A stretch of DNA of 64,000 nucleotides from Alteromonas naphthalenivorans (GTDB lineage Bacteria > Pseudomonadota > Gammaproteobacteria > Enterobacterales > Alteromonadaceae), in assembly GCF_000213655.1 (NCBI RefSeq), contig NC_015554.1:1612001-1676000 (forward strand). The letters are read 5' to 3'. The stretch's first letter is position 1. Each line of letters opens with the position of its first letter. Made by a program: the position numbers and the translations under genes. The notes under the pieces were generated by a model. That model was not told where the DNA came from and ran no database searches. It was given only the letters and a program-made list of their open reading frames with translations. This document shows, in pieces, positions 8,109-63,609 of the stretch.

Positions 8109-9323
8109 ATGTCAGACACGTTAGAACAAGCAAAAGCCCGCGCCGAATCACTTCGTGGGCAGATAAACGAATACAACTATCAATACTATGTGCTCGATGC
8201 CCCAACAGTGCCCGATGCGCAATATGATAGAGATATGCAGGAACTCATCAGCATCGAAAAGCAATTCCCTGAATTGCAGAGTGTAAGTTCGCCAAGTCAA
8301 AAAGTGGGGGGCTCTGCGCTTTCTGCTTTCGAGCAAGTTACCCATGAAGTGCCTATGTTATCACTTGATAACGCGTTTGATGATGTGTCGCTATTGGCGT
8401 TTGAAAAACGTATTTACGATCGCTTAAAAGACAATAAAGAACTTGGTTTTAGTTGCGAACCAAAGCTTGATGGATTGGCGGTTAGTATTCTTTATGAAAA
8501 TGGCGAAATGGTACGTGCAGCGACTCGGGGTGATGGCCAAGTTGGTGAGAACATTACTACCAATGTTCGCACCATTGCAAACGTTCCTCTTAAATTACGC
8601 GGCGAAAACTACCCATCTCGATTAGAAGTTCGCGGTGAAGTATTTATGCCTAAAAAGGGCTTTGAAGCGCTTAATGATTATCAGCGTGCTAACGACGGTA
8701 AAGTTTTCGCTAACCCGCGTAATGCTGCCGCTGGAAGCCTTAGACAGCTTGATTCAAAAGTAACAGCGAAACGCCCGTTAATGTTTTACGCCTATTCTTT
8801 GGGTGTGGTTACGCCTGAGGATTTTGAGCTGCCACATCATCATAGTGCGCGATTAGCGCAGTTAGGTGAGTGGGGTATACCCTTATGCCCTGATATCGAC
8901 ACCGCAGAGGGAGGCAAAGGCTGCTTAGCGTATTATCAGCGTATATTGACCCTTCGTGACGACTTACCTTACGATATTGATGGCGTAGTGTTTAAAGTTG
9001 ATGATATTAGCGTACAACAAACATTAGGCTTTGTGGCACGCGCGCCGCGCTGGGCCATTGCGCAGAAATTCCCTGCCCAAGAAGAAATAACCAAACTGTT
9101 AGATGTTGAGTTTCAAGTAGGACGTACCGGTGCAATGGGTGTCACCATGGACAAAATTGTTTCAAATAGATTTGTTCAAGTACTCAAGTTACATTATTTA
9201 ATTAATGTCTTCACAAAAGGTCTCAACGATACCCTTACATCGTTTTTCCAAACGGATATTTATCAGCCATTATTAGGATATAACAATACCACCTTAGTTG
9301 TTCGTTTAAATGGAGGGCTTTGA
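8109..9323 (+). pseudogene. ligA: 5' fragment of housekeeping ligA, split by the element
   Basis: Codons 1-342 are the N-terminal half of NAD-dependent DNA ligase: domain Ia (about 1-70, with YYVLDAPTVPDAQYD) and the adenylation domain with active-site lysine in EPKLDG (about residue 119) and DGVVFKV. The ligase sequence stops at VGRTGA, at the start of the OB fold. From 9137 the frame runs on for 62 codons of element DNA and ends at TGA 9321-9323. The fragment lacks the OB fold, zinc finger, HhH and BRCT regions, so it should not seal nicks, although the adenylation domain might still react with NAD. The remaining 3' part lies at 62604-63609. The stop is one base before the ATG of the element's own ligase, suggesting translational coupling. 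Confidence 0.95.
9131..9147 (+). other. Left attachment junction (attL)
   Basis: TGCAAT (9131-9136) is ligA sequence repeated at the right junction. After two bases comes GTGTCACCA (9139-9147), whose reverse complement occurs at 62587-62595 at the same two-base distance from TGCAAT. This arrangement of a 6-base core flanked by inverted arms fits a tyrosine-recombinase crossover site. Confidence 0.8.
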
Positions 9324-9324
9324 T

Positions 9325-11259
9325 ATGCTGAATATTGACTTTACCAAAGAACAATTGGAAATATTGAATGAGACAGGTGAAGAATTTAGGCCAGAAAAAT
9401 TAGTATCGTTGTTCTCTCGGTCAGACTTAAATACTGAAGAGTTAGTATTTATTCTAAAAGCATCCAACGCCCTTTATCGGGCGGGTAGTCCGATTCTGTC
9501 AGATAAGCAATATGATATATACATTTCATTATTGCGAGATCAAAATCATCTTCATCCATACCTTAACACTGTTGAGCCAGAGCCTTTAATTGAGTCTAAA
9601 ACAGTCGAACTTCCAGAAAGAATGTTGTCAACGGAAAAAGCATATTCACTTCAAGATATCGAGAAGTGGGTAAAGAGAATACAAAAAGCAGCTCAAGAGA
9701 CGAATGTACCTGAAGAAGAGATTGATATTAGGGTGACACCTAAACTCGATGGTTATGCAGCCTATGATGACGGTGATACTCTATATACCAGAGGGGATGG
9801 TTATAGAGGACAAGATGTAACAAGAGCATTTAAACGCGGATTGAAGGTAGCCAACTCCGGAGAGCGTGGTTTGGGGCCCGGTGAAATAGTTATTAAAAAA
9901 AGTTATTTCACTGAGGTACTCAGTAGTTATTTTGAAAATTCTAGAAATATCCAAGCCGCTATTATAGCTGAAAAGAAGGTTGATAACAGAATCCAGAAGG
10001 CTATAAAAGATGGCGCATGTGTATTTTATCCCTTCGCTCTTCTTAAAAATAATACAGTCAAAATTTCGGTGTTGATGGATGAGTTTGAATCAATCGTTGA
10101 GGGTATTTGGAGTTCGGTAGACTTTGATGTGGATGGTGTAATTTTAGAGACTACAAATGAGACTATAAAAAAGTATATGGGCGCGACAAGACGTAACCAT
10201 AGGTGGCAAATAGCATTTAAAGTAAATGAAGAATCTGCAAATGTCGAAGTAGTTAGGGTTATACCACAAACATCAAGAACTGGAAGGATAGCACCTGTAG
10301 CCGAACTTGTGCCAACGAAATTAAGTGGTGTTACCATAAGCAGAGTGACAGTTCACCATTATAATATGGTCAAAACAAATGGCGTTGGAGCTGGCGCTAT
10401 CATTAGGTTGGTGAGAAGTGGTTTAGTAATTCCCAAAATTGAAGAGGTCTTAACGAAGGTTGCCCCTGATATTCCTGATTCATGCCCCAGTTGTGGATCC
10501 CATTTATTGTGGGAATCAGATAATTTAATTTGTCCTAATAAAATAGACTGCCCCGCGCAAACTGAAAACACCTTAGTTCATTTTTTCAAAACTCTTGGTA
10601 ATAATGATGGGTTTGGGTCTAAGACGATTGAAAAGCTAACCAGCTTTGGAGTTAAATATATCCATGAAATATATAGCTTAGAAGTTGACGATTTCTTAAA
10701 GATTGGCTTTGGTGAGAAGACGGCGATAAATTTATTTAATCAACTCCAAGCGAGCAGAAGTATTGAGATTGAAGACTGGCGATTCCTATCTGCGTTTGGG
10801 GTTAGCCGGTTAGGTTCAGGGAATTGCGAAAAACTTCTAGAACATCATTCATTAGTTAGTTTATTTGAACTTACAGTTTCTGACATGATCCAAATTGATG
10901 GATTCGCTGAAATTAGCGCTGAGGCTATTAAAGAGGGTTTAGAAAATATAAGGGAAGAATTTTTTAAGGTTTATGATTTAGGCTTTGCATTAAGACCAAC
11001 AGCTATAGAAAATACTGAAAAATTGTCATCACCGATATCTGGAGCAATAATTGTTTTTACAGGCACTATGATTGAAGGTTCCCGATCAGATATGGAAAAG
11101 AATGCTAAAGCCTTAGGCGCAAAAGTTGGAAAATCGGTAACTTCAAAGACAACTTATCTTGTTACAGGCGATAAAGTTGGCGAAACTAAAATTAACGCAG
11201 CAAAAGACAAAGGAGTAAAAGTTTTGTCAGAGCAGCAGTATCTTGACTTTATTAGGTAA
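9325..11259 (+). CDS. Element-encoded NAD-dependent DNA ligase (replacement LigA)
   Basis: A complete but divergent NAD-dependent DNA ligase of 644 aa. It has a domain Ia-like region (SDKQYDIYISLL), adenylation motif TPKLDG at about residue 140 with TRGDG downstream, DVDGVILE, an OB fold beginning SRTGRIAPVAELVP, a four-cysteine zinc finger (CPSCG...CPNKIDC, about 386-412), HhH repeats and a C-terminal BRCT domain (about 570-640). All catalytic domains are present, so it should seal nicks with NAD. I chose ATG 9325 because GGAGGG at 9312-9317 sits 7 bases upstream; an in-frame ATG at 9310 is less likely. The TGA of the broken ligA fragment ends one base before this ATG. The DNA looks more AT-rich than the host ligA, consistent with transfer. 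Confidence 0.93.
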   Translation: MLNIDFTKEQLEILNETGEEFRPEKLVSLFSRSDLNTEELVFILKASNALYRAGSPILSDKQYDIYISLLRDQNHLHPYLNTVEPEPLIESKTVELPERMLSTEKAYSLQDIEKWVKRIQKAAQETNVPEEEIDIRVTPKLDGYAAYDDGDTLYTRGDGYRGQDVTRAFKRGLKVANSGERGLGPGEIVIKKSYFTEVLSSYFENSRNIQAAIIAEKKVDNRIQKAIKDGACVFYPFALLKNNTVKISVLMDEFESIVEGIWSSVDFDVDGVILETTNETIKKYMGATRRNHRWQIAFKVNEESANVEVVRVIPQTSRTGRIAPVAELVPTKLSGVTISRVTVHHYNMVKTNGVGAGAIIRLVRSGLVIPKIEEVLTKVAPDIPDSCPSCGSHLLWESDNLICPNKIDCPAQTENTLVHFFKTLGNNDGFGSKTIEKLTSFGVKYIHEIYSLEVDDFLKIGFGEKTAINLFNQLQASRSIEIEDWRFLSAFGVSRLGSGNCEKLLEHHSLVSLFELTVSDMIQIDGFAEISAEAIKEGLENIREEFFKVYDLGFALRPTAIENTEKLSSPISGAIIVFTGTMIEGSRSDMEKNAKALGAKVGKSVTSKTTYLVTGDKVGETKINAAKDKGVKVLSEQQYLDFIR

Positions 11260-11381
11260 AGCTCCTTTATTGATTTGGCGAAATGGGTAACACGGTTGTA
11301 AGAATACACGATAATTAAAATAGGTTTTCCCGTTAGTCAGACCAATAAATAATCTAACGATAAATTGGGCTCATGTAATGC

Positions 11382-62490: not shown

Positions 62491-62586
62491 ATACCTACCT
62501 GAATATGTTCAAATACTGGAGGTTATTGTATTTTGTATATAAAGTCTAATATTACGAGAGTCTCTCTAATTGAAATTAGGTTGCTC

Positions 62587-62603
62587 TGGTGACACTTTGC
62601 AAT
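62587..62603 (-). other. Right attachment junction (attR)
   Basis: TGGTGACAC (62587-62595) is the inverse of the left-end GTGTCACCA, then TT, then TGCAAT (62598-62603), the 6-base repeat shared with 9131-9136. ligA resumes at 62604. Confidence 0.8.
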
Positions 62604-63609
62604 AACGCCAGTGGCAAGATTAGAGCCCGTGTTTGTTGGCGGTGTTACTGTGTCAAACGCCACGCTACATAATCAAGATGAAATTGACCGACTAGGGGTG
62701 AAAGTAGGCGACTACGTTATTATTCGACGCGCGGGTGACGTTATTCCCCAAGTGGTTTCTGTGGTACAAGCCAAAAGAGATGACAACGTTAAAGACATTG
62801 TTTTTCCTACAGACTGTCCAGTTTGTGGCTCTAATGTAGAAAAACTGGAAGACGAAGCGGTTGCTCGTTGTACCGGTGGCCTTATCTGTGCGGCGCAGCG
62901 CAAGCAAGCGTTAAAGCATTTTGCCTCTCGAAAAGCATTTGATATCGACGGTTTAGGCGATAAGTTGGTCGATCAACTCGTTGATGCCGATTTAGTGCAT
63001 AGCCCTGCAGATTTCTTTAATCTTAAGTTAGGCGATGTTGTGGGCCTTGAACGCATGGCCGAAAAGTCTGCGGCCAAATTGTTACTCTCACTTGAGGCGT
63101 CGAAAGCCACCACATTGGCGAAGTTTTTATATGCGTTAGGTATTCGAGAAGTCGGTGAGGCCACGGCAGCGAACCTTGCTTTGCACTTTGAAACCCTTGA
63201 GGCAATTCGTAACGCCAGCGAAGATGAACTCATTGAAGTGCAAGATGTAGGCGGTATTGTTGCGGCGCATTTGCATAACTTTTTCAACGAACCTCACAAC
63301 ACCGATGTTATCGATGCCTTACTAGAGGCGGGTATTAATTGGCCTGCAATTGAGAAAAAACCACAAAGTGCGTTACCTCTTGATGGAAAAACCTGTGTAG
63401 TCACAGGAACATTAAGCGAAATGGGCCGCTCCGATGTTAAAGCGAAACTGCAATTGTTAGGGGCTAAAGTGGCAGGCTCGGTATCGAAAAATACCTCGTT
63501 TTTGGTCGCTGGTGAAAAAGCGGGATCTAAGCTTACCAAAGCACAAGAGCTAGATGTTGAAGTGTGGGATGAAGCTAAGTTACTCGCCTTTTTAGCAGAG
63601 CATGACTAG
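62604..63609 (+). pseudogene. ligA: 3' fragment of housekeeping ligA
   Basis: This continues ligA from TPVARLEPVFVGGVTVSN: rest of the OB fold, zinc finger with CPVCGS and ICAAQ (62815-62890), HhH repeats (FNLKLGDVVGLERMAEKSAAKLL) and the BRCT domain (63370-63605, GKTCVVTGTLSEMGRSDV). Joined to 8109-9136 it gives a normal ligase of 677 aa. On its own it lacks the adenylation domain and cannot ligate. A GTG at 62611 could start a 332-aa fragment, but there is no obvious promoter, so it is probably silent. Confidence 0.95.

What the first reader, a model, noticed from the sequence alone, without database searches (positions are those of the whole stretch)
8109..63609. A mobile element splits essential ligA and carries its own DNA ligase
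Seen: the two halves of LigA are 53.5 kb apart and rejoin exactly in frame (GCA AT + A ACG) to give 677 codons. A complete, divergent NAD-dependent ligase with KLDG, zinc finger, HhH and BRCT sits at the broken end. Known: ligA is essential in bacteria and usually single copy. Inference: the element uses ligA as its insertion site and supplies a replacement, so the host survives and then depends on the element. This would be a strong addiction mechanism without a toxin. I do not know of a described element that works this way.
Basis: partly seen in the sequence, partly recalled or inferred. Interest (0 to 1): 0.95.

Follow-up and report, generated by a model that had tools for sequence, protein, structure and literature searches.

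The report
Mobile island that swaps essential ligase
In this Alteromonas genome a 53-kb island, shared at near identity with other species, sits inside ligA, the normally essential DNA-ligase gene, and carries a different DNA ligase directly behind the break; a broken ligA followed by the same kind of ligase occurs in seven other bacterial families, so the island likely replaces the gene it breaks and would make its host depend on it.

Summary
A 53.5-kb element (9137-62597) cuts ligA inside codon 343; the host genome (one contig) has no other LigA. Three other Alteromonas species carry the island ligase at 99% identity and ligA split at the same codon; their ligA halves differ by dS 0.2 to saturation, the ligases by 0-0.044. 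Elements of the same layout split ligA in Acinetobacter, Photobacterium and Psychromonas, at this site or one 46 codons on. Of 59 named loci with this ligase, 21 follow a broken or remnant ligA and 27 sit behind zipA with no ligA. None of 58 searchable genomes has an intact LigA. In 16 of 17 split loci the broken ligA frame ends 1-14 nt before the predicted ligase start. Best reading: a site-specific tyrosine-recombinase element breaks ligA, supplies a substitute, likely expressed from ligA's own signals, and often becomes the permanent ligase gene. The closest precedent is SE-6283 in bcp. Mobility and complementation are untested.

The parts
8109..9136 (+). ligA 5' part (342 codons + 2 nt): Ia and adenylation domain; frame continues into the element to a TGA at 9321-9323
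9131..9136 (+). 6-bp crossover at the left junction (TGCAAT), read as the host's own target bases because it keeps Gly-Ala-Ile in all four Alteromonas
9137..62597 (.). whole inserted element, 53,461 bp
   Evidence: comparison with three other Alteromonas islands
9137..9147 (+). left terminal repeat GGGTGTCACCA
9325..11259 (+). element-borne divergent NAD-dependent-type DNA ligase; predicted start one base after the TGA of the broken ligA frame, GGAGG upstream (an in-frame ATG at 9310 lacks such a site)
11541..21215 (.). cargo: CusS/CusR-type two-component genes, DUF411 protein, Cus-type RND copper/silver efflux genes
21398..22775 (+). cargo: CopC and CopD
25259..27478 (-). cargo: PifA-like protein, candidate anti-phage gene; no matching ORF in the three sister islands
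28382..49255 (.). cargo: CopA P-type ATPase, copper-resistance multicopper oxidase, cation efflux proteins, second Cus/Czc RND system and others
53742..55097 (-). IntA-like tyrosine recombinase (451 aa), last gene of the core operon
55097..55729 (-). Srap-like small protein (210 aa; named by position)
55881..58512 (.). IS21-like insertion (IstA/IstB pieces; borders approximate) that truncates the IntB-like gene; absent from the three sister islands
58498..60294 (-). IntB-like large tyrosine recombinase; 598 aa here, 673 aa where uninterrupted; Arg/His/Arg/Trp/Tyr residues invariant in 8 aligned relatives
60307..62490 (-). Tfp-like protein (727 aa; named by position), first gene of the core operon; aligned relatives lack the full catalytic set
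   Evidence: fold search uninformative
62587..62597 (+). right terminal repeat TGGTGACACTT
62598..62603 (+). 6-bp at the right junction; differs among the four Alteromonas islands, read as imported from the previous site
62604..63609 (+). ligA 3' part: OB, zinc finger, HhH, BRCT

Best explanation
A horizontally spread element, predicted to be moved by its own tyrosine recombinases, lies inside codon 343 of ligA and carries a different DNA ligase directly behind the break, which likely takes over the work of the gene it destroyed. Shown by sequence: ligA is split at the same codon in four Alteromonas species, and at that site or a second site 46 codons downstream in other families; the ligase is the first element gene after the broken part; the broken reading frame stops just before the predicted ligase start in 16 of 17 loci; no searchable carrier genome has an intact LigA; the element ligase is far more alike between hosts than their ligA halves are; many lineages keep only the ligase, behind zipA, with ligA gone. 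Inferred: the four-gene operon at the other end (Tfp-like, IntB-like, Srap-like, IntA-like) recombines a circular form with conserved codons of ligA, keeping the target's own 6 bp at the ligase end and importing 6 bp at the operon end; ligA's promoter and ribosomes, arriving through the broken part, express the element ligase at once; the host survives, can no longer lose the ligase end, and over time loses the ligA remains and often the rest of the element, leaving the element ligase as its chromosomal ligase.
For: Only the split gene and the element ligase match the LigA adenylation model in the host genome. Three further Alteromonas species have a 99% identical ligase and a split ligA. The 6 bp at the operon-side junction differ in all four (TGCAAT, CGCAGT, TGCAGT, ACGATT), while the 6 bp on the ligase side always keep Gly-Ala-Ile; in two Acinetobacter split at site 1 the ligase-side bases match those of congeners whose site 1 is intact. 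ligA halves: dS 0.20-0.27 between the two closest hosts, 0.8-1.0 between the window and Alteromonas sp. 1_MG-2023, saturated in the rest; element ligase dS 0 to 0.044. Eight uninterrupted elements, and the window but for its IS21, share one anatomy; 6-bp flanks and related terminal repeats recur at site 2. 0 of 58 searchable carrier genomes has an intact LigA, against a full-length match in 3 of 3 positive-control genomes. 21 of 59 loci follow a broken or remnant ligA, 27 of 59 sit behind zipA with none (26 plus L093). The contexts interdigitate in the ligase tree; well-supported branches force at least 11 changes for 'replaced', 8 for site 2 and 5 for site 1. Broken frame ends 1-14 nt before the predicted ligase start in 16 of 17 split loci. 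25 of 59 genomes, including all five Acinetobacter with split ligA, show no other ligase: no LigB-like and no ATP-dependent match. The ligase model resembles E. coli LigA. All 3 genomes with the Tfp-like protein (E <= 1e-30) among 394 searched in the order have a split ligA.
Against: Nothing here tests activity, essentiality or movement. The window's host also has two ATP-dependent ligase matches, and 32 of 59 carriers have at least one. In eight genomes the same ligase family has neither zipA nor ligA upstream, with LigA absent, so some replacements may not have gone through an element. A 34% relative coexists with an intact LigA in G069. The ligase is most divergent in its N-terminal NAD+-binding part (no Nlig-Ia hit, partial adenylation-domain hit). 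The 17 split loci are not all independent: four Alteromonas left ends are nearly identical, and the Acinetobacter and Idiomarina ones are alike. The window's own element is probably disabled by IS21. In Alteromonas sp. KUL49 the only NAD-type ligase is broken into two ORFs. The contexts of the 85 Tfp relatives were not examined.
Confidence: 0.87

Rival explanations
1. The two ligA halves still work together as a two-subunit ligase, as in phages with split NAD-dependent ligases, and the element ligase serves the element's own movement.
For: The halves are open frames in all four Alteromonas, and heterodimeric phage NAD ligases exist (PR1, 9hu3; phage ligases annotated as subunits A and B). Low dN/dS of the halves (0.02-0.03 where computable) does not speak against it, since the insertions look recent.
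Against: Idiomarina xiamenensis keeps only about the last 110-120 residues of the 3' part; Glaciecola 33A, UBA5122 and others lack large parts of ligA; 27 of 59 loci have no ligA part upstream and their searchable genomes no LigA piece. Splits occur at two or three positions, not at one domain boundary.
Confidence: 0.05
2. The ligase arrived first by ordinary gene transfer and made ligA dispensable; unrelated elements then used the dead ligA as a harmless landing site.
For: The ligase family has relatives on large plasmids and at chromosomal places other than ligA.
Against: In the window and the eight uninterrupted elements the ligase lies inside the element, between its left end and the cargo, and it shows the low divergence of the island, not that of the host.
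Confidence: 0.04
3. An ATP-dependent ligase supports the host, and the element ligase is only cargo from a plasmid replication system.
For: 32 of 59 genomes have an ATP-dependent ligase match, including the window's host; the nearest outgroup ligases are on big plasmids.
Against: 27 of 59 genomes have no such match, including the five Acinetobacter with split ligA (two of the 27, both Motilimonas, have a LigB-like protein); the fixed position and reading-frame link at the ligA break is not expected of random cargo.
Confidence: 0.04

Closest known systems
[quoted passage not shown]
   Same: Four core genes at one end (two tyrosine recombinases with the catalytic residues, one large protein without them, one small protein), imperfect inverted terminal repeats, 6-bp native/imported signature, specific targets; SE-6283-like elements insert into bcp and carry a bcp homologue.
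   Different: Gene order is tfp-intB-srap-intA instead of intA-tfp-intB-srap; the imported 6 bp lie at the operon side instead of the far side (inferred); core proteins gave no convincing match to those of SE-Pda04Ya311 beyond weak recombinase signal; the target is the replicative ligase; the replacement is reading-frame-linked to the broken gene and has taken over in many lineages.
GInt islands (ginABCD; PMC5385486)
   Same: Three integrase-type genes plus a small one at one end; cargo islands up to about 70 kb; specific sites.
   Different: Gene order ginA-ginB-ginC-ginD with the atypical recombinase third; the passages read describe no target-gene replacement; protein homology not tested here.
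Tn554 and RIT elements
   Same: Multiple tyrosine recombinases; Tn554 has one ordinary and one large recombinase and a 6-bp footprint (PMC10214605 section 3).
   Different: Tn554 has no Tfp counterpart; the archetype RIT recombinases are 315-410 aa and all have the catalytic tyrosine (PMC10214605 passage).
Islands that regenerate the target's end (tRNA genes; SGI1 in trmE)
   Same: Keep the target function after insertion.
   Different: tDNA islands restore the disrupted gene with island sequence (PMC4383910, search listing); SGI1 inserts at the 3' end of trmE (PMC8409611, search listing); here a whole divergent homologue stands in for a gene cut mid-way.

Membership tests
SE (strand-biased circularizing integrative element) | Imperfect inverted terminal repeats with a 6-bp spacer, split attB kept at the ends | tested here: met
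   the repeats are short, about 9-11 bp in the window
SE (strand-biased circularizing integrative element) | Core operon order intA-tfp-intB-srap starting at the attL end | tested here: not met
   Order is tfp-intB-srap-intA in eight uninterrupted elements and in the window; the pAQU1 SE shows the published order (roles assigned by position)
SE (strand-biased circularizing integrative element) | Target's 6 bp end up beside the core-operon end, imported 6 bp at the other | tested here: not met
   Native 6 bp at the ligase end, variable 6 bp at the operon end, inferred from four Alteromonas junctions and two Acinetobacter with congeners
SE (strand-biased circularizing integrative element) | Tfp and Srap homologous to SE proteins | tested here: inconclusive
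   Profile comparison with one SE (SE-Pda04Ya311) gives no convincing match for Tfp, Srap or IntA and a short recombinase match for IntB; SE proteins are themselves only 20-27% alike
SE (strand-biased circularizing integrative element) | Strand-biased circle formation without empty site | not testable with these tools
   needs PCR on live carriers
GInt | ginA-ginB-ginC-ginD operon at the 5' end | tested here: not met
   Gene order differs (against PMC5385486 passages)
GInt | Homology to GinC/GinD | not tested
   no GInt sequence was fetched
NAD-dependent DNA ligase (LigA fold) | KxDG, adenylation, OB, zinc finger, HhH, BRCT in order | tested here: met
   zinc finger just under the Pfam cut-off, Ia domain not recognised
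NAD-dependent DNA ligase LigA equivalog | Score over the curated LigA cut-off | tested here: not met
   299.5 of 369 and 297.6 of 444 bits

The most novel reading that the evidence does not exclude
A previously undescribed family of tyrosine-recombinase elements takes an essential gene hostage by exchange: it breaks the replicative DNA ligase gene at conserved codons, delivers its own ligase into the broken gene's transcript and reading frame, and has by this route repeatedly and permanently replaced the chromosomal ligase across Gammaproteobacteria, leaving the foreign ligase as the only trace.
Probability: 0.72. Interest if true: 0.96.

Novelty: new variant of a known kind. Interest (0 to 1): 0.92.

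Why it matters
LigA is regarded as an essential and usually single gene, and is a studied antibacterial target (general knowledge; LigA inhibitor structures are among the hits). Here an apparently selfish element seems to own that function, which would be a toxin-free way to become indispensable and a concrete route by which core replication genes are exchanged between distant bacteria. The graded series, from intact element through remnant to ligase alone, makes the origin of such replacements testable. It also suggests that carriers rely on a ligase only about 30% identical to LigA, which could matter for LigA-directed inhibitors.

Tried and rejected
Gamma-mobile-trio: considered from memory; no NCBIfam match to such a model for the core proteins, and none of the six papers listed has the term in title or abstract; dropped.

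Self-immunity by recoding: the element ligases differ from LigA exactly at both crossover codons (Ala/Ser to Arg/Lys/Asn in 60 of 60; GDV to GLV in 56 and GEV in 4 of 60; 12 LigA compared), but 45 of 87 LigA-conserved columns in that region also differ, and plasmid relatives differ too, in 5 of 5 at site 1 and 4 of 5 at site 2. So this is no evidence of selection for immunity, only a possible consequence.

Phage origin of the ligase: 111 stretches of viral contigs matched a pattern but none encoded a relative; phage ligases are at most about 30% identical in the 15 of 1182 records listed. Large plasmids hold nearer ones, up to 46%.

Fold of the Tfp-like protein: model pLDDT 79, no PDB match at E <= 0.001; the name is by position only.

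A class-wide draw of 369 genomes gave the Tfp-like protein (E <= 1e-20) only in the window's genome.

Those aimed at a ligA-targeting or gene-replacing element listed none; one search showed 15 of 56 papers. Read: PMC9345347 abstract, section 5 part 1, section 6 and passages; PMC10214605 abstract, section 3 part 1 and passages; PMC5385486 and PMC10293859 passages only. Supplementary files, where SE target lists would be, could not be read.

Rows left out: the ligase tree omitted L098 and L099 (short) and used 4 of 12 LigA rows; A3 holds 40 ligases, the window's and 39 of the 59 loci; L053's genome was not held. G098-G100 are the same assemblies as G039, G017 and G056 reached through named loci, and G629/G777 have the same coordinates as G124/G122, so they are not counted as further evidence. 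In one search twelve loci fell in neither class; one (L093) has a ZipA protein directly upstream, one (L082) has its split ligA on other contigs, two (L086, L098) begin near a contig end, and eight have other upstream neighbours.

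
Full report
WHAT IS THERE. ligA begins at 8109, is cut after 9136 (two bases into codon 343, VGRTGA|I) and resumes at 62604-63609. The insert, 9137-62597, is 53,461 bp and is flanked by TGCAAT on both sides. Its ends are short imperfect inverted repeats, GGGTGTCACCA / TGGTGACACTT. The ligase at 9325-11259 matches the adenylation, OB, HhH and BRCT models over their cut-offs and the zinc-finger model just under it. It scores below the LigA equivalog cut-offs and is 31-33% identical to two intact Alteromonas LigA over the part aligned. 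Its model matches E. coli LigA. The host genome is one contig with only these two LigA-type adenylation matches, both in the window. The cargo is mainly copper and heavy-metal resistance. At the right end, transcribed away from the junction, lie genes for a large Tfp-like protein, a large IntB-like tyrosine recombinase, a small Srap-like protein and an IntA-like tyrosine recombinase. The catalytic residues are invariant in the IntA and IntB relatives aligned and incomplete in Tfp. An IS21-like insertion truncates IntB in the window; the three sister islands lack it.

IT RECURS IN ALTEROMONAS. Among 98 genomes searched, the window's own included, the three best foreign hits, 99% identical, are Alteromonas sp. 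BMJM2, LOR and 1_MG-2023 (named through). Each has ligA split at the same codon by about 48 to 72 kb. The islands are about 97% identical to the window over most of the cargo shared, 89-94% at the recombinase end, while the listed host-gene matches upstream range from about 76 to 89%. Synonymous divergence separates host from element: ligA halves 0.20-0.27 for the closest pair (BMJM2/LOR), 0.8-1.0 for the window against 1_MG-2023 and saturated for the rest; element ligase 0, 0.007 and 0.042-0.044. The 6 bp on the ligase side keep Gly-Ala-Ile in all four. Those on the operon side are TGCAAT, CGCAGT, TGCAGT and ACGATT, the last of which would read Gly-Arg-Leu. In Acinetobacter modestus and A. 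tandoii, split at the same site, the ligase-side bases equal those of congeners in which this site is intact. I infer that the ligase-side bases are native and the others imported, and that the four insertions are separate events.

IT RECURS IN OTHER FAMILIES. A scan of named genomes with three ligases gave 59 loci. By tblastn, script tally and Pfam, 21 of 59 lie behind a broken or remnant ligA 5' part, 27 directly behind zipA with no ligA, and 11 elsewhere or at contig ends; in one of these, Photobacterium alginatilyticum, the split halves are on other contigs. Loci split at sites 1 and 2 belong to Alteromonadaceae, Moraxellaceae, Pseudoalteromonadaceae, Oceanospirillaceae, Idiomarinaceae, Psychromonadaceae, Vibrionaceae and Colwelliaceae. 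Of the 59 loci, 58 had searchable genomes. None has an intact LigA by the TIGR00575 model: LigA matches are 5' or 3' pieces, and the only full-length NAD-type ligase is the element type. The same search shows intact LigA as one full-length match of 862-888 bits in three control genomes. Exceptions to mention: two Motilimonas also have a 497/498-aa LigB-like protein; Alteromonas sp. KUL49's ligase is itself broken into two ORFs; and a more distant, 34% relative coexists with an intact LigA in one genome of the order, G069.

TWO TARGET SITES, ONE ANATOMY. Eight uninterrupted elements (BMJM2, LOR, 1_MG-2023, three Acinetobacter, Photobacterium aquimaris, Psychromonas SA13A), and the window but for its IS21, read [ligA 5']-ligase-cargo-(intA<-srap<-intB<-tfp)-[ligA 3'], with core proteins 27-56% identical between genera. 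Site 1 is Gly-Ala-Ile|Thr-Pro; site 2 is Gly-Asp-Val|Ile-Pro, 46 codons further in the window's LigA. Related termini and 6-bp flanks are seen at both. A third, divergent type breaks ligA near codon 150 (Gammaproteobacterium 42_54_T18, Glaciecola 33A). Pseudoalteromonas luteoviolacea B shows a left end at site 1 and a right end at site 2. Ligases from split and replaced loci interdigitate in the tree: supported branches force at least 11 changes for replaced, 8 for site 2 and 5 for site 1. This is what repeated insertion followed by decay would give.

READING-FRAME LINK. Both sites are cut after the second base of a codon. In 17 loci with the 5' part broken at site 1 or 2, the broken ligA frame runs through the element end and stops 1-14 nt before the predicted ligase start in 16; Photobacterium aquimaris has 73 nt. 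The loci are not all independent: the four Alteromonas ends are nearly identical, and the Acinetobacter and Idiomarina ends resemble each other. In the window the order is GGAGGGCTTTGATATG. I infer that ligA transcription and translation feed the element ligase; this is untested.

IS THE LIGASE SUFFICIENT? Untested by experiment. In 27 of 59 genomes neither an intact LigA nor a match to the ATP-dependent ligase model was found. Two of these, both Motilimonas, have a LigB-like protein, which leaves 25 with the element-type ligase as the only one detected, including all five Acinetobacter with split ligA, one of them a complete genome. The window's host has two ATP-dependent ligase matches, so it is a weaker single case.

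WHAT IT WORKS LIKE. Sections and passages of PMC9345347 and PMC10214605 describe SEs: four core genes, 6-bp native/imported rule, specific targets; [quoted passage not shown] That is the precedent. Our element works like an SE but fails two tested membership features, gene order and side of the imported 6 bp; homology of Tfp and Srap to the pAQU1 SE was not seen but is inconclusive with one reference. A module with the same order as ours occurs on Providencia and Pseudomonas plasmids, so the core family appears wider than the ligA group. In an order-wide draw of 394 genomes the Tfp-like protein occurred in 3 (E <= 1e-30), all with split ligA.

VERDICT. Observation confirmed; replacement strongly supported by comparison; dependence and movement inferred. 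Five paper searches listed no description of a ligA-targeting element.

Noticed in passing
window 55881-58512: IS21-like insertion truncates the IntB-like recombinase, so this copy of the element is probably immobile; the three sister islands lack it.
   Followed up: partly
window 25259-27478: PifA-like gene (PADLOC E 1.6e-268) in a cargo slot that holds other ORFs in the sister islands: a possible cargo-exchange hot spot.
   Followed up: no
L108 4570-11630, L109 7930-13214: The Acinetobacter sp. KCTC 92772 and Photobacterium aquimaris ligA elements carry type I restriction-modification genes as main cargo.
   Followed up: partly
L072 about 10760; L128 2300-2460: Pseudoalteromonas luteoviolacea B has an element left end at ligA site 1 and a right end at site 2 on another contig: two elements in one gene or a composite with deletion.
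   Followed up: partly
L037 17941-19871 (also L094): In Alteromonas sp. KUL49 the only NAD-type ligase, behind zipA, is broken into two overlapping ORFs; sequencing error or real, not resolved.
   Followed up: no
L043, L044, L045: The same four-gene order (tfp-intB-srap-intA, about 22-28% identical where aligned) occurs on Providencia and Pseudomonas plasmids, unconnected with ligA as far as seen; possibly a wider unnamed element group.
   Followed up: partly
L130-L134: Large gammaproteobacterial plasmids carry 32-46% identical ligases, annotated (where annotated) as BRCT-domain or hypothetical proteins; likely the nearest outgroup of the element ligase.
   Followed up: partly
L060, L088, L091, L095, L101-L104: Loci in which this ligase family has neither zipA nor ligA upstream, in genomes where no LigA was found.
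   Followed up: partly
L010 (G069 C70): A 34% identical ligase relative in a genome that also has an intact LigA and a LigB-like protein; its setting was not studied.
   Followed up: no
G056 island, oriented about 28.6-56.6 kb (L029-L032): The Alteromonas sp. 1_MG-2023 island holds an extra stretch of about 28 kb absent from the window, including a second two-component pair and RND efflux genes.
   Followed up: no
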